Shown here piece by piece: positions 37,624 to 48,762 of a DNA stretch of 64,000 nucleotides. The DNA lies in the NCBI GenBank assembly GCA_015060625.1, contig SUYC01000004.1:62001-126000 (forward strand), given 5' to 3'. Positions within the stretch are counted from its first letter, which is position 1, and the number at the start of each line of letters is the position of its first letter. This DNA comes from Xylanibacter ruminicola. GTDB taxonomy: Bacteria > Bacteroidota > Bacteroidia > Bacteroidales > Bacteroidaceae. Under the pieces are notes generated by a model that saw only the letters and a program-made list of their open reading frames with translations, made no database searches and was not told the origin of the DNA. The position numbers were made by a program, and so were the translations under genes.

Positions 37624-37701
37624 AAACCGCAAGAAACTGAAATTATTACATAAATAATTTGGCTGATTTAGAGAAAATGCGTATTTTTGCAGCATAAAAA
37701 T

Positions 37702-38466
37702 ATGAACACAATGACAACTATCATAGCAGGACCTTGCGTCATCGAGTCGGAAGAACTACTTGACACGGTGGCGCAGAAATTGGTGAGTATCAACAAGACC
37801 CATGGTACCGACATCATCTTTAAAGCCTCGTTCGACAAGGCTAACCGCACATCGATCACATCCTTTCGTGGTCCAGGTATCGACCGTGGGCTGCAAATGC
37901 TGGCAGATATCAAATCGAAGTACGGATTGCGAATACTGACAGATATTCACGAGAGTTGGCAAGCCAAGCCTGTTGGCGAGGTGTGCGACGTCATTCAGAT
38001 ACCGGCATTTCTGTGCCGACAGACCGACCTGATTGTAGCTGCAGCCAAGACAGGCGCTGTGGTCAACATCAAGAAAGCTCAGTTCCTGAGTGGCAAGGAT
38101 ATGGTTTACCCCGTAGGCAAGGCAAAAGATGCAGGTGCTAAGGAGGTGTGGCTTACAGAGCGTGGCAACATGATGGGCTACAATAACCTGGTGGTGGATT
38201 TTCGTAACATTCCAGACATGTTGGAGATTGTGCCAACGGTTATCATGGACTGTACACATAGTGTTCAGCGCCCAGGCGGAAGCAATGGTAAGACAGGCGG
38301 CGACCGTCGTTTTGTGCCCCAGATGGCATTAGCTGCCAAAGCCTTTGGAGCTACAGGCTACTTCTTCGAAGTACACCCTACTCCCGATCAAGGTCTTAGC
38401 GATGCCGCCAACATGTTAGAACTCGACAAGCTCGAGCCTCTGGTAAAGAAGCTCATTGAAGATTAA
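37702..38466 (+). CDS. kdsA: 3-deoxy-8-phosphooctulonate synthase
   Basis: AGPCVIESEELL, FKASFDKANRTS, SFRGPGIDRGLQML, DCTHSVQRPGG. Confidence 0.95.
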   Translation: MNTMTTIIAGPCVIESEELLDTVAQKLVSINKTHGTDIIFKASFDKANRTSITSFRGPGIDRGLQMLADIKSKYGLRILTDIHESWQAKPVGEVCDVIQIPAFLCRQTDLIVAAAKTGAVVNIKKAQFLSGKDMVYPVGKAKDAGAKEVWLTERGNMMGYNNLVVDFRNIPDMLEIVPTVIMDCTHSVQRPGGSNGKTGGDRRFVPQMALAAKAFGATGYFFEVHPTPDQGLSDAANMLELDKLEPLVKKLIED

Positions 38467-38475
38467 AAGGTAAAA

Positions 38476-39426
38476 ATGAAGACTACAAAAGATATTGCAA
38501 TACAATGTATCAAGGACGAGGCGGAAGCAGTGCTGAGTTTGATTCCGCAACTGGACGAGAACTTCGACCAGGCTGTTGAACTCATTCTGAACTGCAAAGG
38601 CAAGGTAATCGTAACAGGCGTGGGCAAAAGCGGCCATATCGGCGCTAAAATTGCAGCCACCTTATCGAGTACAGGCACCCCTTCGTTTTTCACGAACCCC
38701 CTAGATGTGTTCCACGGTGACTTAGGTGTGATGACCCAGGACGACGTAGTGCTGGCAATATCAAACTCTGGTCAGACCGATGAACTGCTGCGTTTCATCC
38801 CAATGGTGTTGCACATGCAGATACCTATCATCGGCATGAGCGGCAACCCCCAATCATTGTTAGCTAAATACTCTACCTATCACCTGAACGTGCAAGTTGA
38901 GAAAGAGGCCTGTCCGCTGAATTTGGCACCAACCAGCAGCACCACAGCACAGTTGACGATGGGCGATGCACTGGCAATTGCCTTGATGGAGAAGCGCAAT
39001 TTCCAACCACGCGACTTTGCTCAGTTCCACCCAGGTGGTGAGCTTGGCAAGCGTTTGCTGACAACAGCTCAGGACGTGATGCGTACGGAAGACATGCCTG
39101 TGCTGCCACCAGAGATGCATCTGGGCGAGGCTATCATCTTAGTGAGCAAGGCCAAGTTAGGTCTTGGTATCGCGATGGTGAACAACGAAATCGTAGGACT
39201 GATTACCGATGGCGACATTCGTCGTGCCATGGAGAAATGGCAAGCTCAATTCTTCGACCGTACCGTGAGCGACATCATGACACGTACTCCCAAGATGGTA
39301 AAACCAGAGACAAAGATAACAGAGATTCAACGAATCATGAACCAATATAAGGTACACTCTGTATTGGTTACCGACGGCGAGAATCATTTGTTAGGAGTGG
39401 TTGACCACTACTCGTGTATGATTTAG
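38476..39426 (+). CDS. kdsD: arabinose-5-phosphate isomerase (KpsF/GutQ family)
   Basis: SIS domain VTGVGKSGHIGAKIAATLSSTGTPSFF plus two CBS domains; next to kdsA. Confidence 0.93.
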   Translation: MKTTKDIAIQCIKDEAEAVLSLIPQLDENFDQAVELILNCKGKVIVTGVGKSGHIGAKIAATLSSTGTPSFFTNPLDVFHGDLGVMTQDDVVLAISNSGQTDELLRFIPMVLHMQIPIIGMSGNPQSLLAKYSTYHLNVQVEKEACPLNLAPTSSTTAQLTMGDALAIALMEKRNFQPRDFAQFHPGGELGKRLLTTAQDVMRTEDMPVLPPEMHLGEAIILVSKAKLGLGIAMVNNEIVGLITDGDIRRAMEKWQAQFFDRTVSDIMTRTPKMVKPETKITEIQRIMNQYKVHSVLVTDGENHLLGVVDHYSCMI

Positions 39427-39439
39427 TGAAGAGTGAACA

Positions 39440-42400
39440 GTGAACGTTATGAAGACTATAAAGAAAATACTAATCGCCTTAATGCTCATCATTCCGCTTG
39501 GAGTGGTGGCAGCCTACCTTTTTAAAACGCTGGAAGCTCGAGATGGACTGACATCCAGTCAGGTTAACTGCATTCTAAAGGACTCTCGCGGTTACATGTG
39601 GTTTGGAACTCCAGCAGGTTTGTACCGCTATGACGGCTACACCTTCCGTAACTTCCAGAGCGACTCACAGAACGGCAGCTCGCTCAGCGATAGCTATATC
39701 AACTCTATCCAGGAAACACTCGATGGCAACTTGCTCATCGAAACAGCCTCGGGCTACTGCATCTACCACCCACAGACAGAGAGCTTTGAGCGCGACATGA
39801 AGCAAGCCTTTGCACGTATGGGAATCGAAACCATCCCATCGGTGGTATATGTCGATAAACACAAGAATCTTTGGGGAGCTATCCCCAACAAAGGCGTTGT
39901 ATGCTATAACCAGCAACAGCAAACGCTGATCGAGTTTGGTTATACCGACGACTCGAAAGGAGTCCCCCAAGGCGTTGTATGCTCTATCAGCGAATGTAAG
40001 GAAGGAGCGCTCATTGTTTACGACGATGGTAAGATTGCCTGCTGCGATGTGATGCATCAGCAAAGCACGCTTTGGGTAAAGGAGGGCATCCCAGCCCTGA
40101 AGGACCATCGTACCAAATCGCTACGTGCCTATGCCGATGTTAATGACAATATCTGGCTGTACGGACAGGGCACATTGGTGATGTTCAACAAGCAGAAAGG
40201 CACTTGGGATTACACCATGGGCGAGAAGTTGGGTGTAACAGGTTTGGGCGTGGATCGCAATATCAATGGCATGGCAGGTAATGCTGGTAGCATCTGGGTA
40301 GGTAGCGACCAGTTAGGACTGCTGCGATTTGACCCGAACACCTTTGAGTATCAAGAGGTACAGCCCAAGAACATCAACGAGCAGCAATGGGTAAAAGACC
40401 ACACCAGTATTCAGAGCTTGTACATGGACAATACAGGTGTGCTGTGGGTAGGTACAGAGAAATCGGGTGTAGCCTACACAGGAAAATACATCTATCGTTT
40501 CGGATCTGATTTGATAGGCGATGTTACCGCGATGACGCAACATCCCAATGGCACCATTTGGTACGGAACTAGCGACAGAGGTGTTATCGGTTTCGATGGA
40601 AAATTGGCCAGTCTGAAGGTGTCATGCATGAGCAACACTCCCGATGGTAGTATCTGGATAGGTTCGAAGCGCAACGGACTAACCCGCATCAAAGATGGCA
40701 TATCAACCATCTACTCGGTATCGAAGGACAGTGTTCGTACTATCATCGACGACCATATCAACGCGCTTACATGCGATAAGATTGGTAACCTGTGGATAGC
40801 CACCAATGGTGGACTGCAGGTATATAACCCACGCATGAATACGTTCTCAAGTTATACTCGCGAGAACGGAAAATTGAGCACCAACAGTATTACCAGTTTG
40901 TTCTACAAGCAGGATGCTAATGCCAACAACCTGTTGGTAGGTACCAGCGAGGGGCTGATTATCCTGAACCTCTCGACAACAGAGAAAAAGGTTTTAACAG
41001 GAAACAGCACCAACCTGAAGAGTTTTACCAACAACTACATCACACAGATATTCCAAGATTCACGCGGACTGATTTGGGTTGGTACTCGCGAAGGTTTGAA
41101 CATTCTGAACTTAGAGACAGACGAACTGGACTATCTGACAGAGAAGCAGGGTTTATGTAATAACAACATTTGCGGTATTGCCGAGGACAAGAACCACTGC
41201 ATCTGGGTAACCACAAGTCGTGGTGTGAGCCGTATCGTTATACAGCGTAATCACGAGGATGGTGTTAACAATTATGGTTTGTACAACTACAGCACAGCTG
41301 ATGGTTTGCAGAGTAACGAGTTTAATACAGGTGCCATCCTTACCAAGCAGGATGGCGAAGTGCTGCTGGGCGGATTATATGGCGTGAACTGGGTACTACA
41401 TCAGACTGGTGCCAAGAAGGAGGAGCTGCCCCGCGTGATGCTTACCCAGTTGTTCATAGGCGAAGAAGAGATTGTCACTGGTCACGAGTATCATGGCAAG
41501 GTAATCCTTACCCAGGCACTGAACGAAACCAGTCGTATCGATCTGTCTCACAATCAGAACACTTTCAGCATTAAGTTTGCCGCAGGAAACTACAACCAGA
41601 GCGAGCGACTGCAGTTTATGTACTGGATGGAAGGCCGCGACGAGGACTGGCACCATGGTGATGCCCTATCGCATGGTGTAAGTTTCAACAACTTGTCGGC
41701 AGGCAAATACTATCTTCACGTTAAAGCCATCAATGCCGAGGGAGCAGTAAGCGATCAGGAACGTGTACTCGAAATCAACGTAGAACGCCACTTCCTGCTT
41801 TCTTGGTGGATGATAACAGCCTATCTGATAGTGCTGGCAGTAATTATCTACTTCTGGCGCATAGGCATCAATCAGCTTAAAGCCATCAAGCACCGTAAAG
41901 AGGCTGTGATCAAGGAACTACGCATGCAGCGCGAGGAAATCAAGGCAGCAAGCGACGATTTGCGACAGCCAATGGCCCGTATGACCTCTATCATAGGTAA
42001 CCTGTCGGAGAAAGAGAAAACGCTTGAGGAGAAAGAGCAGTTGAATGCCCTGCACTCACAGATGCTGCAGATTATCACCCGTGTAGCTGATATGCAGATG
42101 AATCTGGAGCACCCTGAGGAGCGAGCCAAGAATATGGTTCAGGACCGCCTGACCATCAACAGTAAGGGCGAGATAGAACTACCGGAGATTGCGAGCGACG
42201 TACTGACATCAGAAGCCACCCATTCACGTGCAGCTATCGACTCGCCTACATCGAAGTTCACTGTCATTATGATTGATGACAATGAGGAGTTCCTGGAATT
42301 TGCAGCTGCCCGACTGAGATTTGTGTACAACTTCCATGTTTATAACGACATAGAGAAGGCAGCCGAGGATCTGGAACAGATCAAGTGTGACCTGGTGGTT

Positions 42401-43228
42401 TGTAAGCAGGACATGTTTGGCATGACTGGTAGCGACCTGTGCAACCAGTTGAAGACCAACTACACCACACAGAACATGAAGTTTATCCTGATGACAGATA
42501 CCGTACTAACGCCACAGGATATGCGCTCAAAGAACATCACTTTGAGTGCCGATGACTATCTGGCCAAGCCATTCAACATGCAGGAGGCCACGATGCGATT
42601 CAACAAGGTGCTGGGATTGGGTGTTGTACAGATGGATAGCAACCTGATTGAGGGTGCAGAGACTCGACGTCTGGAAGGTCAGAGCAGCAGTATGACAACA
42701 GCAACAGAGACGATGGATGCAGGCGAGATTGAGACCACCGCTCTGACCGAGGTGAGCGCCGACGACCCCATGAACAAGGTTGACACGGTGGTTAAGAACC
42801 CACGCAGTCAGGTAGCAGCCAACAATCTGCCAGAGGGTATCAAGGGTATCGACGACGAAGAGGAAGGTGGCGGTAACGATTTCTCGATGGTAGATGCGAT
42901 GGACCGCCAGTTGCTTAAGAATATTGAACAATACGTATTACAGAATATGAGCCGCGGACAGATTAGTTTGGAAGAGATGGCCAATGCCATGGGAATGGGA
43001 CGTGTACCTTTCTTCCACCGTGTACGCAGCCTTACAAGCAAAACACCAGCAGAACTCGTGAGAGATATGCGACTGAAACACGCCTGCATTCTGCTGAAAC
43101 GTACTAATATTAACATGAGCGAGTTGGCTTCAAATATCGGATTTATGACTGCCGAGAACTTCATCAACATCTTCAAAGAAAAGTTCGGCATGACGCCACT
43201 CGAATACAGATTGAAACATCGTAAATGA
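39440..43228 (+). CDS. hybrid two-component-like regulator: reg_prop/Y_Y_Y sensor + degenerate HisKA-like helix + degenerate REC + AraC HTH; no HATPase
   Basis: Propeller repeats (DSRGYMWFGTPAGLYRYDG, DSRGLIWVGTREGLN), Y_Y_Y, TM, SDDLRQPMARM, REC-like VIMIDDNEEF...CDLVVCKQDMFGMTG...LAKPF, AraC-type ASNIGFMTAENFINIFKEKFGMTPLEYR. Confidence 0.9.
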   Translation: MNVMKTIKKILIALMLIIPLGVVAAYLFKTLEARDGLTSSQVNCILKDSRGYMWFGTPAGLYRYDGYTFRNFQSDSQNGSSLSDSYINSIQETLDGNLLIETASGYCIYHPQTESFERDMKQAFARMGIETIPSVVYVDKHKNLWGAIPNKGVVCYNQQQQTLIEFGYTDDSKGVPQGVVCSISECKEGALIVYDDGKIACCDVMHQQSTLWVKEGIPALKDHRTKSLRAYADVNDNIWLYGQGTLVMFNKQKGTWDYTMGEKLGVTGLGVDRNINGMAGNAGSIWVGSDQLGLLRFDPNTFEYQEVQPKNINEQQWVKDHTSIQSLYMDNTGVLWVGTEKSGVAYTGKYIYRFGSDLIGDVTAMTQHPNGTIWYGTSDRGVIGFDGKLASLKVSCMSNTPDGSIWIGSKRNGLTRIKDGISTIYSVSKDSVRTIIDDHINALTCDKIGNLWIATNGGLQVYNPRMNTFSSYTRENGKLSTNSITSLFYKQDANANNLLVGTSEGLIILNLSTTEKKVLTGNSTNLKSFTNNYITQIFQDSRGLIWVGTREGLNILNLETDELDYLTEKQGLCNNNICGIAEDKNHCIWVTTSRGVSRIVIQRNHEDGVNNYGLYNYSTADGLQSNEFNTGAILTKQDGEVLLGGLYGVNWVLHQTGAKKEELPRVMLTQLFIGEEEIVTGHEYHGKVILTQALNETSRIDLSHNQNTFSIKFAAGNYNQSERLQFMYWMEGRDEDWHHGDALSHGVSFNNLSAGKYYLHVKAINAEGAVSDQERVLEINVERHFLLSWWMITAYLIVLAVIIYFWRIGINQLKAIKHRKEAVIKELRMQREEIKAASDDLRQPMARMTSIIGNLSEKEKTLEEKEQLNALHSQMLQIITRVADMQMNLEHPEERAKNMVQDRLTINSKGEIELPEIASDVLTSEATHSRAAIDSPTSKFTVIMIDDNEEFLEFAAARLRFVYNFHVYNDIEKAAEDLEQIKCDLVVCKQDMFGMTGSDLCNQLKTNYTTQNMKFILMTDTVLTPQDMRSKNITLSADDYLAKPFNMQEATMRFNKVLGLGVVQMDSNLIEGAETRRLEGQSSSMTTATETMDAGEIETTALTEVSADDPMNKVDTVVKNPRSQVAANNLPEGIKGIDDEEEGGGNDFSMVDAMDRQLLKNIEQYVLQNMSRGQISLEEMANAMGMGRVPFFHRVRSLTSKTPAELVRDMRLKHACILLKRTNINMSELASNIGFMTAENFINIFKEKFGMTPLEYRLKHRK

Positions 43229-44460
43229 TATTAAGTAAGCAACATCAGACAGGAATAGCCACCATGCTATTCCTGCTGATTTCTCTGATTGGAAAAGCTC
43301 AGACAAGCGACTCGCTGATAGTGAGTCAGATGAAGACTGTTGGTATTAACTTCTACCCACATAATGAAGTACAACTGATTATGTCGGGCAAGGATAAGTT
43401 CGACCTGTTGTTCGAGGATATCCGACAAGCCAAAAGCAACGTACATCTTGAGTACTTTAACTTTCGCAACGACTCGATAGCCTCGTTGTTATTCGACCTA
43501 CTGCGCGAGAAGCGCAAGCAGGGTGTCGAGGTGCGTGCACTGTTCGACGGGTTTGGCAACGACTCAAACAACCAGCCACTGAAAAAGCACCACATAAAAA
43601 GTCTGCGTGCCGACAGCATCGACATCCACGAGTTCGACCCAGTGCGTTTTCCCTGGGTAAATCATATCTGGCCTCGCGACCACCGCAAGATAGTAGTCAT
43701 AGACGGACACATCGCCTATACTGGCGGCATGAACGTTGCCGACTACTATATCGTCGGCACAAAACAGGTGGGTGAATGGCGCGATATGCATTGCAGAATT
43801 GAAGGTCCTGTGGTAAACGAGTTACAGACCATCTTTGCCCGTATCTGGCAGAAGGTCACCAAGGAGCAGCTGAACGACGAGAAATACTACCAAGCAAAGG
43901 ACAAAGGCGATAAGATGGTGGGCATAGCTAACCGCGAACCTAACAGAACCAACAAGATTATGCGCCAGTTCTACATCTCAGCCCTCGACGATGCTCAGGA
44001 TTCTATCAAGATTATCAATCCCTATTTTACGCTGACGCCATCGGTTAAAAAGGCTATTCACCGAGCTATCAAGCGTGGTGTGAAGGTTGATATCCTAGTA
44101 TCGGCCAAGAGCGATATTCCTTTAACCCCCGATGCTGTATTCTATAACGTGCACAAGCTGATGAAGAAAGGTGCCAATATCTGGCTGTATCAGCCCGGTT
44201 TCCACCACTCTAAGATTATGATGGTGGACGGACGGTTCTGCACCGTGGGTAGCACCAACCTTGATGCGCGCAGCCTGCGATACGACTACGAGGTGAATGC
44301 GCTGATTATTAACAAGCAGGTGACTCAGGAGTTGCAGGATATGTTTATGCGCGACACCAGAAAAAGCGTGCTGCTAACACCTGAGGAGTGGAACAAGTTC
44401 CGTACAGGCTGGCAGAAGTTCCGTGGCTGGTTTGCCCAATTATTTACCCCATTTATGTAA
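43225..44460 (+). CDS. cardiolipin synthase (phospholipase D family)
   Basis: Two HKD motifs: DHRKIVVIDGHIAYTGGMN and HHSKIMMVDGRFCTVGSTN. Confidence 0.93.
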   Translation: MILSKQHQTGIATMLFLLISLIGKAQTSDSLIVSQMKTVGINFYPHNEVQLIMSGKDKFDLLFEDIRQAKSNVHLEYFNFRNDSIASLLFDLLREKRKQGVEVRALFDGFGNDSNNQPLKKHHIKSLRADSIDIHEFDPVRFPWVNHIWPRDHRKIVVIDGHIAYTGGMNVADYYIVGTKQVGEWRDMHCRIEGPVVNELQTIFARIWQKVTKEQLNDEKYYQAKDKGDKMVGIANREPNRTNKIMRQFYISALDDAQDSIKIINPYFTLTPSVKKAIHRAIKRGVKVDILVSAKSDIPLTPDAVFYNVHKLMKKGANIWLYQPGFHHSKIMMVDGRFCTVGSTNLDARSLRYDYEVNALIINKQVTQELQDMFMRDTRKSVLLTPEEWNKFRTGWQKFRGWFAQLFTPFM

Positions 44461-44466
44461 ATCCTC

Positions 44467-45621
44467 ATGAACAGAAACACCGTAATATCCATAGCCAAGG
44501 GTTTGGCCATTATCCTGATGGTGATAGCCCATGCCGAAGCTCCAGGCTGGTTGTGCCGATTCATCTTCGAGTTCCACATGCCACTGTTCTTTATTACAGC
44601 AGGCTACTTTTTCTCGTTGAAGTATCTGAACGATGAAGCCACGTTTATAAAGAAGCGCATCAAGGGTCTTTATATCCCGTTTGTGAAATGGAGTGTGTTC
44701 TTTCTGCTTATCCACAACCTGATGTTCAAGATAGGCATTCTGAACGAGATGTATGGCAACGAGATGGGTGGTGTGACCCACCCTTATAGCTGGCACCAGA
44801 TGCAACAGAACCTTTGGACCATCTTTACCTCGATGGCAGGCTACGATGCATTTCTTTGTGGTGCGTTCTGGTTCTTCCGTGGACTGTTTGTGGCCAGCAT
44901 CTTATACCTTATTATATATAAGGTGCTGGATAGCACTATATCATTAGTACGTTACAAAAAAGCTATCCCCTATCTCATCTGCATCATCATGCTGTTGCTG
45001 TGCGGATGGAAAACTTACGAGGGACTGCGCGTTCTGACGCTGATACAGGGTGGCTATCGCGATATGATGGGCTGTTTTTTCTTTGGTTGCGGTTTTATTT
45101 TCCGACAGTATGCCGAGAGCTACCAGGCGGCTATCAAGCGTTACTACGCTATCTTCTGGACCACCATTGTGTTTGGCATCATCGTATATCTATTCTCACA
45201 CTACCTTACAGCCAACATGAACTGGCGCTCTACCTACACCCAGTTTCTGTCGCTGCCTATACCAGCCATTTTGGGATTCCTGATGATGTACAATATCAGT
45301 ATGCTGCTGGATAAGAACGATAACGGGCTGAAACGGTTCCTGGTATATACAGGCGACCACACACTCAACATCTTTATCTTCCACATTGTTGCCTACAAGG
45401 TGGTTAGTTTGATAAAGATATGGTACTACAGCTTGGACATACGTCAGATAGGCTGCCACATGGTGATACACCACAACTCGCAACAGGATGCGTTTTGGGT
45501 GCTCTACACCATTGCTGGTGTAGGCCTACCATTACTGGGAACATGGTTATCGGAAAAATGGCAGACTAGACGTTGTAAACGTCAATCAAATCTATCATCA
45601 TCGTCATATCATACTCATTAA
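44467..45621 (+). CDS. acyltransferase family 3 membrane protein
   Basis: ISIAKGLAIILMVIAHAEAPGWLCRFIFEFHMPLFFITAGYFF. Confidence 0.9.
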   Translation: MNRNTVISIAKGLAIILMVIAHAEAPGWLCRFIFEFHMPLFFITAGYFFSLKYLNDEATFIKKRIKGLYIPFVKWSVFFLLIHNLMFKIGILNEMYGNEMGGVTHPYSWHQMQQNLWTIFTSMAGYDAFLCGAFWFFRGLFVASILYLIIYKVLDSTISLVRYKKAIPYLICIIMLLLCGWKTYEGLRVLTLIQGGYRDMMGCFFFGCGFIFRQYAESYQAAIKRYYAIFWTTIVFGIIVYLFSHYLTANMNWRSTYTQFLSLPIPAILGFLMMYNISMLLDKNDNGLKRFLVYTGDHTLNIFIFHIVAYKVVSLIKIWYYSLDIRQIGCHMVIHHNSQQDAFWVLYTIAGVGLPLLGTWLSEKWQTRRCKRQSNLSSSSYHTH

Positions 45622-47755
45622 TGCCCTTTGTCATTAATAGTAAACGCTCTTTGAAAAAAATGTCGCAAATGGCATCCCTACGTTTCTCTTTGGGCGTGGT
45701 AGCTATTAAATAGGTACGGAAACAGATGGCAGCATCGTCGATCTGCCCCGTAAGCCACAGATAGAAAGCAAAGTTTATGCTGTCGTTGTCATTTATTTCC
45801 TCTTGTTCCATCAACTGCTTGTACAAGCGGTCGGCCTGTTCGTACTTGCCATCGCCAGTAAGTGCCCAAGCTAACACACGTGCCACATTCATGTCATCGG
45901 GATCCTCAAAGTTCAAGCGGAACAGTATCTGTTCGGCCTCTTCATATCTCCAGAGATTGGTAAGACAAACGGCCTTGTTAAGCTGATATGATTTCTTATC
46001 GGCATTCAACTCCAGCAAACGGTTGTAGGTATTGAGCGCATCCTCGTAATCATGATTTTTAAACTTGATACGGGCCAAGGCAAATAAGGCACGTTCGCTC
46101 TTTGGGTCAAGTTCGAGAGCCTTTTGATAGCTATTCACCGGATCGTCGCCCAGATAGCCTTTCAACATATAGTAATCAAAGTCGTAATACTTCCGGTCGT
46201 GCAAACTTTGCATCACTTCTAAGGCATAACTCTTCTGGTTACGCTTAATCAAGAAAGTAACTACATCCTTGAAATAGGCCTGAATCTCGGAAAAGAAGAA
46301 TGTTATTTTTGTAAGAAACAAGGCCTGATTTGAGTCTTTATCGAATACGTTCTTAAACTCGTTGCGAAGCGGATTAAGGCGGAAGAAACGGAACATATCC
46401 TGCAGATAGATACGCCGGATATAGGCCGGCGTACTAATCTCATCCTGCCCTAATTTCTGATACATCACGGCCTCGCCATTATCCAGCATGTGGCGAGCTT
46501 GTTCGGGTAGGCCATTCAGCACAGTATCGAAGGCCAGCAAGAACGAGTATTTGTCGCTGTTGCAGAATGGACCATACTTCAGAATAGCCGACAGGAATTT
46601 GATATTTTCGAACTTTTCCCAAGTCTGAACAATTCCAGGATGATCGGTATAGAAAGGCGTAAACCAATAAGATATCTCATCGAAGAAAGGGTATCGTTTC
46701 ATCTGCGAGAAGCCGCCAAAATACACGTCGCTACCCTGCTTCTGCATATCCATCATGCGACGGAAGCTGTTTTCGAGTTTTTCCACTTCCTGCTCTTCGG
46801 CTTCAGGGTGCAGAATATCATTCATGATACTATCTTCGTCCTGGTCCTGCTCGTCTCTTTGCCGCATTTTCTGCTGGTTCTTAAGCAGGTCGGGCATTAT
46901 CTCCTTTTCAATGGTGTGCCTATCCTCATCGGCGCTCATGCAGTAGAACATCTGCTTCTGCAGCTCTATCAACTCAGCCACGCAGTTGGGGTTCTGCAGG
47001 GTTTGTTCTATCAGTTCTTGCATCTCATGGAAAAGTAACAACCCTAATTCGCTATCGATTGAAAACACCCAACCGAAAAGAGCTCTCTGTCGCACATACT
47101 CATCGGTGGCCTGCTGGTACACATGGATAAGGGTACGAAACTTAACGATATCGTAGCAGTTCATGGCTGCCAGCGTAATGGCAGTGACAATGAGCTGCTG
47201 GTCGACCGAGTCGATGGTTGGCGACAGCAACAACTGCTCGAAATCCTCACCCTCACCATCATTCCATAATTCGGCAGTCAAGATATGGGCAAACAGTTCG
47301 CACATAAACTGCGTATGATTCTTATACAGAGTTTTGCGATGTTCCTTAGCGGTGTGCTGAGGTTCCAGCTCGAGCAAGGCCACATCCGACACGAACTTCT
47401 CTAACTGCTCGCGCACCACTTGTACCGACCAGTCGCGCGGACTCAGATTAGCCTTCATATAGAGCGATGCCATCAGAGGCGATTTCAGCACTCTCACTTT
47501 AGTAAGAATATTGGCATAAAGCCTATACATACGGGTAAGCAGCTTTTCGTAGAGCTGTGGCAACTCAGGGTCCTTATAACCTTTACGCCAATAATCAATC
47601 ATCATCTGATAATCCGATTTAATTGCAAACAATCGGTCGGAATTAATCTGGTGCGGATGTACAGCCAGATAATTCTCCATATTCTTAACAGCGTTCATCA
47701 GGTTTCTATCCTCGATAGCCTCCCGCACGCTTTCTAATGCATTGTCTTTAATCAT
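45566..47755 (-). CDS. tetratricopeptide repeat protein
   Basis: 729 aa; TPR pattern (ALDPKSERALFALARIKFKNHDYEDALNTYNRLLELN). Confidence 0.8.
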   Translation of the reverse strand: MIKDNALESVREAIEDRNLMNAVKNMENYLAVHPHQINSDRLFAIKSDYQMMIDYWRKGYKDPELPQLYEKLLTRMYRLYANILTKVRVLKSPLMASLYMKANLSPRDWSVQVVREQLEKFVSDVALLELEPQHTAKEHRKTLYKNHTQFMCELFAHILTAELWNDGEGEDFEQLLLSPTIDSVDQQLIVTAITLAAMNCYDIVKFRTLIHVYQQATDEYVRQRALFGWVFSIDSELGLLLFHEMQELIEQTLQNPNCVAELIELQKQMFYCMSADEDRHTIEKEIMPDLLKNQQKMRQRDEQDQDEDSIMNDILHPEAEEQEVEKLENSFRRMMDMQKQGSDVYFGGFSQMKRYPFFDEISYWFTPFYTDHPGIVQTWEKFENIKFLSAILKYGPFCNSDKYSFLLAFDTVLNGLPEQARHMLDNGEAVMYQKLGQDEISTPAYIRRIYLQDMFRFFRLNPLRNEFKNVFDKDSNQALFLTKITFFFSEIQAYFKDVVTFLIKRNQKSYALEVMQSLHDRKYYDFDYYMLKGYLGDDPVNSYQKALELDPKSERALFALARIKFKNHDYEDALNTYNRLLELNADKKSYQLNKAVCLTNLWRYEEAEQILFRLNFEDPDDMNVARVLAWALTGDGKYEQADRLYKQLMEQEEINDNDSINFAFYLWLTGQIDDAAICFRTYLIATTPKEKRRDAICDIFFKERLLLMTKGINEYDMTMMIDLIDVYNV

Positions 47756-47758
47756 GAA

Positions 47759-48676
47759 TTACTTTTTCTTTTCAAGCCATTTTCTGGCATGATCGATATC
47801 TTTCTGACGTGTTGCCTGATAAGTGAATTTCAGCGAATCGGGCAGAGCCTGAATGGCCTGTGGAGAAAGCCGATAGTACTTTTTCAGGATTTCGGCGTAG
47901 TGGGTAACGCCAAAGCGGTTGATCGAGTCGCAAGCCTGCTTGTAACCTTTCATAAAGACCTCTATCTGGTGCTTGCGCGCCTTATCATCCATATTCTTGG
48001 TGCGGAACACGAGTGCGCCCATCTGTATATCCTCCTTACGGGTGTCGAGCAGCACGTGGTGCTTTTTCAGCAAGGCCTGACTGGCCTGTGGCTCCGTAAG
48101 CAGCATGGCATCCATCTCGTTGTTCTCAAGCATCTTCAAGCGTATGTTCACATCGTTAATCTGAATACGGAACACACGCTCGGGGGCCAACTTGGCACTA
48201 TCGACAGCCAAATCGCCCAACAGGTCGGTAACCGAATAGCGAGTCATGGCCAGCATCTTATCGTCGAGATGCTTAAAGTTGGTGATACGCAGCTGTCGCT
48301 GACTCAGCAGCAGCCAGTAGGCATTGGTGGCTGCGGCATATCGCAGGGGGGTGCCCTCCTTTATCATCTTCTCGGCACGTACCACATCAGTAATAGCACC
48401 TTCGGCACGGCCCCGAATCAGGGCGGTGTCGATATCCATCTGGGCGTTATAACGTTTCAGTCGGATATCAACGGCCGAATCAAACATCTGTCGCTCTTTG
48501 GCCACGAATACAGGCAGACAGTCCAATGTGGGCATGACGGCAATTTTGAGTGCAGCCGAATCTTCACGCCATAATTTCAAACGCTGCTCACGCGAGATGC
48601 GTTTGGTTTCCTCGTACGACTGCCCACAAGCTGCAAGCATGACGAGAGTTATGAATGCTAAAACTAATTTCTTCAT
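47759..48676 (-). CDS. periplasmic substrate-binding lipoprotein (NMT1/ABC SBP-like)
   Basis: Lipobox VMLAACG; LKIAVMPTLDCLPVFVAKERQMF... Confidence 0.7.
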   Translation of the reverse strand: MKKLVLAFITLVMLAACGQSYEETKRISREQRLKLWREDSAALKIAVMPTLDCLPVFVAKERQMFDSAVDIRLKRYNAQMDIDTALIRGRAEGAITDVVRAEKMIKEGTPLRYAAATNAYWLLLSQRQLRITNFKHLDDKMLAMTRYSVTDLLGDLAVDSAKLAPERVFRIQINDVNIRLKMLENNEMDAMLLTEPQASQALLKKHHVLLDTRKEDIQMGALVFRTKNMDDKARKHQIEVFMKGYKQACDSINRFGVTHYAEILKKYYRLSPQAIQALPDSLKFTYQATRQKDIDHARKWLEKKK

Positions 48677-48762
48677 AATCGACTGCAAAGGTACAATTTT
48701 TTTTTTAATTTTCAATTTTCAATTATCAATTTTCAATTATTATTATTACCTTTGCACACATT

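What the first reader, a model, noticed from the sequence alone, without database searches (positions are those of the whole stretch)
39440..43228. HTCS-shaped regulator with its whole phosphorelay apparently missing
The sensor, Y_Y_Y, TM, coiled helix, REC and AraC architecture is kept. However, the HisKA box reads SDDLRQPMARM (H replaced by D), only ~45 aa separate helix and REC so no HATPase fits, and the REC acceptor site reads DLVVCKQDMFGMTG where SDxMMPxMDG is expected (D to K). It may signal across the membrane by conformation alone, as a one-component relative of HTCS.
Basis: partly seen in the sequence, partly recalled or inferred. Interest (0 to 1): 0.75.

Follow-up and report, generated by a model that had tools for sequence, protein, structure and literature searches.

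The report
HTCS-derived sensor regulator without phosphorelay
A large membrane sensor fused to a DNA-binding domain, kept by over a hundred rumen and gut Prevotella species inside their Kdo/cardiolipin envelope operon, has permanently lost the kinase and phosphorylation sites of its two-component ancestors, so it most likely switches genes by shape change alone.

Summary
ORF 39440-43228 (1262 aa) has Reg_prop propellers, Y_Y_Y, a TM helix, a degenerate HisKA hairpin, a receiver and AraC, with no HATPase. The phospho-His is Asp839 and the receiver acceptor is Lys989. In 81 full-length orthologs position 839 is always D/E and 989 always K; 17 more divergent orthologs give 16 acidic + 1 G and 16 K + 1 M. 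None has H or D there. The rest of the receiver (DD, T, Y, K) is kept, dN/dS in hairpin and receiver is about 0.01-0.04 for close pairs, and the 108-residue TM-helix-hairpin has no indel in 81 sequences. All 80 loci carry kdsD-REG-cls; Prevotella lacking the gene have kdsA-kdsD-cls closed up. Related genera show other erosion stages at the same cls locus. Best reading: a phosphorylation-independent, one-component descendant of an HTCS, signalling through a rigid helical hairpin and a pseudo-receiver. It is not an HTCS. Precedents exist (pseudo-receivers, BT4236, six kinase-less propeller-AraC regulators in this same genome), so it is a new variant of a known kind. Signal, regulon and mechanism are untested.

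The parts
39440..43228 (+). The regulator gene (1262 aa; GTG as listed, an ATG lies at codon 4, 39449)
39521..41539 (+). Periplasmic beta-propeller sensor (Reg_prop repeats), aa 28-700
   Evidence: Pfam PF07494 2.8e-30; PDB 4a2l 3.2e-64 by sequence
41588..41782 (+). Y_Y_Y domain, aa 717-781
41804..41857 (+). Transmembrane helix, aa ~789-806, running without a break into the cytoplasmic helix
   Evidence: hydrophobic stretch; AF2 helix residues 4-72 of the model = aa 789-857
41897..42103 (+). Pseudo-HisKA (DHp-like) helical hairpin, aa 820-888
   Evidence: sub-threshold HisKA match; alignment to intact HTCSs; AF2 hairpin; no indel in 81 orthologs
41954..41956 (+). Codon for D839 in place of the phospho-His (D/E in 81 of 81)
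42104..42250 (+). 49-aa variable linker where the HATPase would lie, aa 889-937
42251..42613 (+). Pseudo-receiver, aa 938-1058; keeps DD, T, Y, K
   Evidence: REC fold by Foldseek, TM-score up to 0.88
42404..42406 (+). Codon for K989 at the phospho-acceptor Asp position (K in 81 of 81)
42641..42709 (+). Conserved peptide NLIEGAETRRLEGQSSSMTTATE between receiver and DNA-binding domain, aa 1068-1090
42890..43225 (+). AraC-type DNA-binding domain, aa 1151-1262, the most conserved part
37658..37689 (+). Bacteroidetes-type promoter TTTG-N20-TATTTTTG upstream of kdsA; probably transcribes the operon
   Evidence: TA..TTTG box present upstream of kdsA in 78 of 79 REG+ loci
37702..38466 (+). kdsA (Kdo-8-P synthase); likely ATG start, the listed TTG start overlaps the promoter
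   Evidence: NCBIfam
38476..39426 (+). kdsD (arabinose-5-P isomerase family, SIS+CBS)
43225..44460 (+). cls (cardiolipin synthase, PLD family), overlapping the regulator's stop codon by 4 bp
   Evidence: TIGR04265 292.8 bits, cut-off 290
44467..45621 (+). Acyltransferase 3 family gene, 6 bp after cls; present in part of the orthologous loci
   Evidence: PF01757

Best explanation
This is a phosphorylation-independent transmembrane one-component transcription regulator that descended from an HTCS. Shown: the HATPase is absent, neither phospho-residue exists in any member examined in Prevotella, and all other modules are under strong constraint. Inferred: the periplasmic propeller/Y_Y_Y dimer senses an envelope or glycan signal; the change passes through a continuous TM-to-cytoplasm helix into a kinase-dead helical hairpin that keeps the protein dimeric; the hairpin repositions a pseudo-receiver fixed by K989, which with its linker peptide holds or releases the AraC domain on DNA. 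Its most likely targets include its own kdsA-kdsD-REG-cls envelope operon or other envelope genes; this last step is the weakest.
For: No HATPase and only a sub-threshold HisKA. D/E at the His in 81/81 and K at the Asp in 81/81; 17 more divergent members never show H or D. Near-invariant hairpin (49% of columns) and AraC domain (55%). dN/dS ~0.01-0.04 in hairpin and receiver for close pairs. No indel in 108 residues of TM-helix-hairpin while both linkers vary. Uninterrupted helix and REC fold in the AF2 model. Fixed gene order kdsD-REG-cls in 80/80 loci. The HTCS inhibitory motif S/CHIP is lost (reads QNMK here), and PMC11253607 links loss of that motif to phosphorylation-independent DNA binding and names BT4236 (Q for the phospho-His) as a case. 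The same genome has six Reg_prop-Y_Y_Y-AraC proteins with no kinase or receiver at all, so a propeller-to-AraC design without phosphate exists by architecture.
Against: No functional data. AF2 model confidence is moderate (mean pLDDT 70.8, pTM 0.32) and monomeric, so dimer geometry and the receiver-DNA-binding-domain contact are not seen. The kdsA promoter region shows only a housekeeping-type promoter and no conserved operator, so regulation of its own operon is unsupported.
Confidence: 0.7

Rival explanations
1. Constitutively DNA-bound regulator: the receiver is locked by K989, and activity is set by amount, proteolysis or membrane release rather than by signalling through the hairpin.
For: Atypical receivers such as HP1043 are phosphorylation-independent dimers (PMC12632262; that HP1043's acceptor residue is Lys is recalled from general knowledge). 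The S/CHIP inhibitory motif is lost. The sister genus has Glu at the acceptor, which can mimic phosphate.
Against: The sensor and the TM-hairpin are under strong constraint without indels, which a constitutive factor would not need.
Confidence: 0.17
2. A kinase-dead partner that forms mixed dimers with an intact HTCS and modulates or is modulated by it.
For: In G090 an intact HTCS, its nearest intact relative, lies in the same cluster. The hairpin is kept.
Against: No intact HTCS adjoins the gene in the window, and the 80 loci share no such neighbour among the genes tested. Pairing with an unlinked HTCS is untested.
Confidence: 0.08
3. Phosphorylated in trans or at another residue, so still part of a phosphorelay.
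For: The metal-binding Asp, T and K of the receiver are kept.
Against: Acceptor is Lys in 97 of 98 examined Prevotella orthologs and Met in one.
Confidence: 0.04
4. A decaying pseudogene or assembly artefact.
For: Several catalytic lesions at once.
Against: 80 intact full-length orthologs down to 60% identity, dN/dS near 0.02, same lesions in independent assemblies.
Confidence: 0.01

Closest known systems
Hybrid two-component systems (HTCS) of Bacteroides, e.g. BT4124, BT4663
   Same: Propeller/Y_Y_Y sensor, TM, HisKA-derived hairpin, receiver, AraC domain in one chain; best PDB sensor match is 4a2l.
   Different: No HATPase, no phospho-His, no acceptor Asp, no S/CHIP motif; sits in a Kdo/cardiolipin operon rather than a PUL.
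BT4236, a B. thetaiotaomicron HTCS with Gln at the phospho-His (PMC11253607)
   Same: HTCS architecture with the His lost; proposed to act without phosphorylation.
   Different: PMC11253607 reports only the His change and a partial motif change for BT4236; whether its HATPase and Asp are intact was not checked here. The family here has also lost HATPase and Asp and is fixed across about 120 Prevotella genomes.
Pseudo-receiver / aspartate-less receiver proteins (HP1043, CosR, ChxR, RitR)
   Same: Receiver fold with the acceptor replaced; first acidic residue, T/Y switch pair and Lys kept, the usual pattern (PMC4395418).
   Different: Those named are soluble orphan regulators. Here the pseudo-receiver is tethered to a membrane sensor. 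Arg, Lys and His together make up 4% of acceptor substitutions (PMC4395418).
Reg_prop-Y_Y_Y-AraC (and Y_Y_Y-LuxR) one-component proteins, e.g. six and one in this genome
   Same: Membrane propeller sensor joined to a DNA-binding domain without kinase.
   Different: They have no hairpin-receiver remnant.
DivL-type pseudo-histidine kinases
   Same: HK-derived protein lacking the phospho-His.
   Different: DivL keeps its catalytic domain, repurposed as an input sensor of a response regulator (PMC4211667, abstract); here that domain is deleted.

Membership tests
HTCS | Periplasmic Reg_prop/Y_Y_Y sensor, TM and AraC-type output in one chain | tested here: met
HTCS | HisKA domain with phospho-accepting His | tested here: not met
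   D/E in 81/81 orthologs; Pfam below cut-off
HTCS | HATPase_c catalytic domain | tested here: not met
   no Pfam match at E<=1; 49-aa gap; no such fold in the model
HTCS | Receiver with acceptor Asp | tested here: not met
   K989
HTCS | S/CHIP-DK inhibitory receiver-DNA-binding-domain motif (PMC11253607) | tested here: not met
   reads Q-N-M-K; the P position is Lys in 81/81; the K of helix alpha8 appears as K or R
HTCS | Located in a polysaccharide utilization locus | tested here: not met
   kdsD-REG-cls in 80/80; the related gene in G090 does sit near a sugar transporter and a beta-galactosidase-like gene
Pseudo-receiver (PsR/ALR) | Receiver fold lacking at least one of the five active-site residues | tested here: met
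   Foldseek REC matches with target TM-score up to 0.88; acceptor missing
Transmembrane one-component regulator | Sensor and DNA-binding domain in one chain with no phosphotransfer chemistry | tested here: met
   sequence only
Transmembrane one-component regulator | Signal-dependent DNA binding without phosphorylation | not testable with these tools
   needs biochemistry
DivL-type pseudokinase | Retained catalytic (HATPase) domain used as a sensor | tested here: not met

The most novel reading that the evidence does not exclude
A whole HTCS phosphorelay has been converted stepwise into a purely mechanical signal path, with the kinase hairpin and receiver reused as conserved allosteric parts rather than discarded, and the resulting regulator was captured into the Kdo/cardiolipin operon as an envelope-integrity sensor controlling lipopolysaccharide core supply in Prevotella.
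Probability: 0.3. Interest if true: 0.78.

Novelty: new variant of a known kind. Interest (0 to 1): 0.6.

Why it matters
How pseudo-receivers are switched on and off is described as unsolved (PMC12632262). This family offers a natural series at one locus: intact HTCS, kinase-less form with Asp kept, Glu form, Lys form. It makes 'how much of two-component signalling needs phosphate' testable. It also suggests dedicated sensing tied to Kdo and cardiolipin synthesis in rumen Prevotella, where I found no described regulator in the papers searched.

Tried and rejected
(1) Hidden HATPase: no Pfam match at E<=1, too little room, no such fold. (2) Assembly error: same form in independent genomes. (3) Pseudogene: purifying selection. 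(4) A wide Bacteroidales family: order-level searches with the hairpin-receiver profile (247 and 393 genomes) found the degenerate form only in the own genus (the three weak hits are ordinary HTCSs); the sister-genus members came from the family searches. (5) A conserved operator upstream of kdsA: only the -33/-7 promoter is conserved. (7) Literature: no paper on a kdsA-linked HTCS-like regulator in the library. (8) A two-gene (kdsA+kdsD) tree gives three presence changes with modest support, so gain versus loss is not settled. (9) A notebook entry of mine gives 18/19 for K among the divergent members; the recount is 16 of 17, used here.

Full report
OBSERVATION. The ORF at 39440-43228 (+) encodes 1262 aa. 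Pfam gives Reg_prop, Y_Y_Y (717-781), Response_reg (942-1050) and HTH_18 (1180-1257). HisKA is below its cut-off (14.9 against 26.9 bits) and no HATPase appears at E<=1. Aligned with intact HTCSs of the same genome and order, the box SHELRTPL reads SDDLRQPM and the acceptor site of the receiver reads VVCKQDM; where those proteins carry a whole HATPase this one has 49 residues. One refinement: the receiver keeps D946, mostly D947, T1019, Y1040 and K1043.

NOT CHANCE OR ARTEFACT. A scan of genome contigs gave 202 relatives; the 80 best match the query from residue 1-28 through about 1262 at 60-97% identity. The His position is D (67) or E (14) and the acceptor is K in all 81 sequences. Seventeen further, more divergent members give 16 acidic and one G at the first site and 16 K and one M at the second; across the two sets K is found in 97 of 98. 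Close pairs show dN/dS of about 0.01-0.04 in hairpin and receiver, although dS is near saturation, so the ratios are rough; the most distant pair (78% identical) gives 0.12 in the receiver. The TM-signal helix-hairpin (785-892) has no indel in any of 81 sequences, whereas the linker before the receiver varies in 47 and the linker after it in 78.

DISTRIBUTION. In the own genus 120 of 299 sampled genomes, the own one included, carry a clear ortholog (E from 1e-132 to 1e-86; the next matches, ordinary HTCS receivers, start at 1e-27). Outside the genus, two members of a sister genus (g2) match clearly and one of a third genus more weakly. No degenerate member turned up outside the family in order-wide searches.

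LOCUS. In all 80 loci kdsD, the regulator and cls are consecutive on one strand, with kdsA in front wherever the contig reaches. The regulator's stop overlaps the cls start (ATGA, 43225-43228). Fifteen near-complete Prevotella genomes without the gene have kdsA-kdsD-cls with nothing between. A kdsA+kdsD tree needs three changes of presence. A Bacteroidetes-type promoter, TTTG-N20-TATTTTTG, precedes kdsA at 37658-37689; its TA..TTTG box is present in 78 of 79 loci, and no further conserved operator was seen. The operon is therefore probably transcribed from a housekeeping promoter, and autoregulation is unsupported.

EVOLUTIONARY SERIES. In the sister genus the related genes lie at the same locus (mutS2 on one side; cls and, in G073, the two genes that follow cls in the window on the other). 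They lack HATPase, have E or Q for the His, and have Glu instead of the acceptor Asp. In G090 an intact HTCS (HisKA, HATPase, receiver with Asp) lies in the same cluster with sugar-transport and glycosidase-like genes, and it is the nearest intact relative in the trees (99/97; 87/91 on the sensor alone). In a third genus (G109, L206) the cls-adjacent homolog has lost hairpin and HATPase altogether but still has an acceptor Asp; the sensor tree puts it beside the degenerate clade (94/91), while the receiver+HTH tree does not resolve it. The simplest history (inference): an HTCS next to cls lost its kinase, then its phospho-sites drifted to Glu in one line and became fixed as Lys in Prevotella. 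The G073, G090 and G109 cases each rest on one incomplete draft genome, so they are less secure than the Prevotella data.

STRUCTURE. AlphaFold2 of residues 786-1262 (45 sequences) gives one unbroken helix from the TM into the first hairpin helix (aa 789-857), a second hairpin helix, a receiver fold and an AraC domain, with disordered linkers and no ATPase fold (mean pLDDT 70.8). Foldseek matches the middle part to solved receivers (target TM-score up to 0.88). The helix shows a heptad-like hydrophobic periodicity. A conserved peptide, NLIEGAETRxLEGxxxSMTTATE, follows the receiver and could be a docking element (inference).

MECHANISM. Shown: no kinase, no phospho-residues, conserved modules. 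From the literature: in HTCSs an inhibitory contact between receiver and DNA-binding domain depends on S/CHIP-DK; its loss allows phosphate-independent DNA binding, and BT4236 lacks the phospho-His (PMC11253607). Here S/CHIP is replaced by QNMK, with the Pro position an invariant Lys. Pseudo-receivers generally keep the first acidic residue and the Lys, and basic residues at the acceptor are rare, 4% (PMC4395418). Inferred: ligand-driven change in the sensor dimer is passed mechanically through the helix to a kinase-dead hairpin, which shifts the pseudo-receiver and frees or holds the AraC domain. Confidence 0.7 for phosphate-independent signalling through this path; the regulon (own operon or envelope genes) is a guess from position.

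KNOWN OR NEW. It fails three defining tests of an HTCS (His, HATPase, Asp), so it is an HTCS descendant, not a member. It works, by architecture, like a transmembrane one-component regulator. Such proteins are ordinary here: six Reg_prop-Y_Y_Y-AraC and one Y_Y_Y-LuxR in the same genome lack kinase and receiver. New is a wide, syntenic, strongly constrained family that keeps both the dead hairpin and the dead receiver. Hence 'new variant of a known kind'.

Noticed in passing
L206:4512-7982 (G109, another genus of the family): A cls-adjacent propeller-receiver-AraC protein (1157 aa) that has lost HisKA and HATPase entirely but keeps an acceptor Asp (LCDMVMPEMDG); possibly phosphorylated by small-molecule donors or in trans.
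   Followed up: partly
L086:3825-13638 (G090): Degenerate regulator and an intact HTCS in one cluster with an aquaporin-like, a sugar-transporter-like and a beta-galactosidase-like gene before cls; looks like an HTCS-type sugar locus next to the envelope genes.
   Followed up: partly
window 42641-42709: Highly conserved peptide NLIEGAETRxLEGxxxSMTTATE directly after the receiver, followed by a variable acidic linker.
   Followed up: partly
L091, L094, L095, L100, L103, L104, L097 (own genome): Seven of the 19 Y_Y_Y proteins of this genome have no kinase or receiver at all (six AraC, one LuxR output).
   Followed up: yes
L112 and L107: Rare exceptions in the family: Met instead of Lys at the acceptor (L112), Gly instead of Asp/Glu at the His position (L107).
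   Followed up: no
window 45566-48715: TPR protein and SsuA-like substrate-binding protein, transcribed towards the operon, are neighbours of cls in most loci, also in the sister genus; relation unknown.
   Followed up: no
window 37687-37702: The listed TTG start of kdsA overlaps the conserved -7 promoter box; the true start is probably ATG at 37702.
   Followed up: partly
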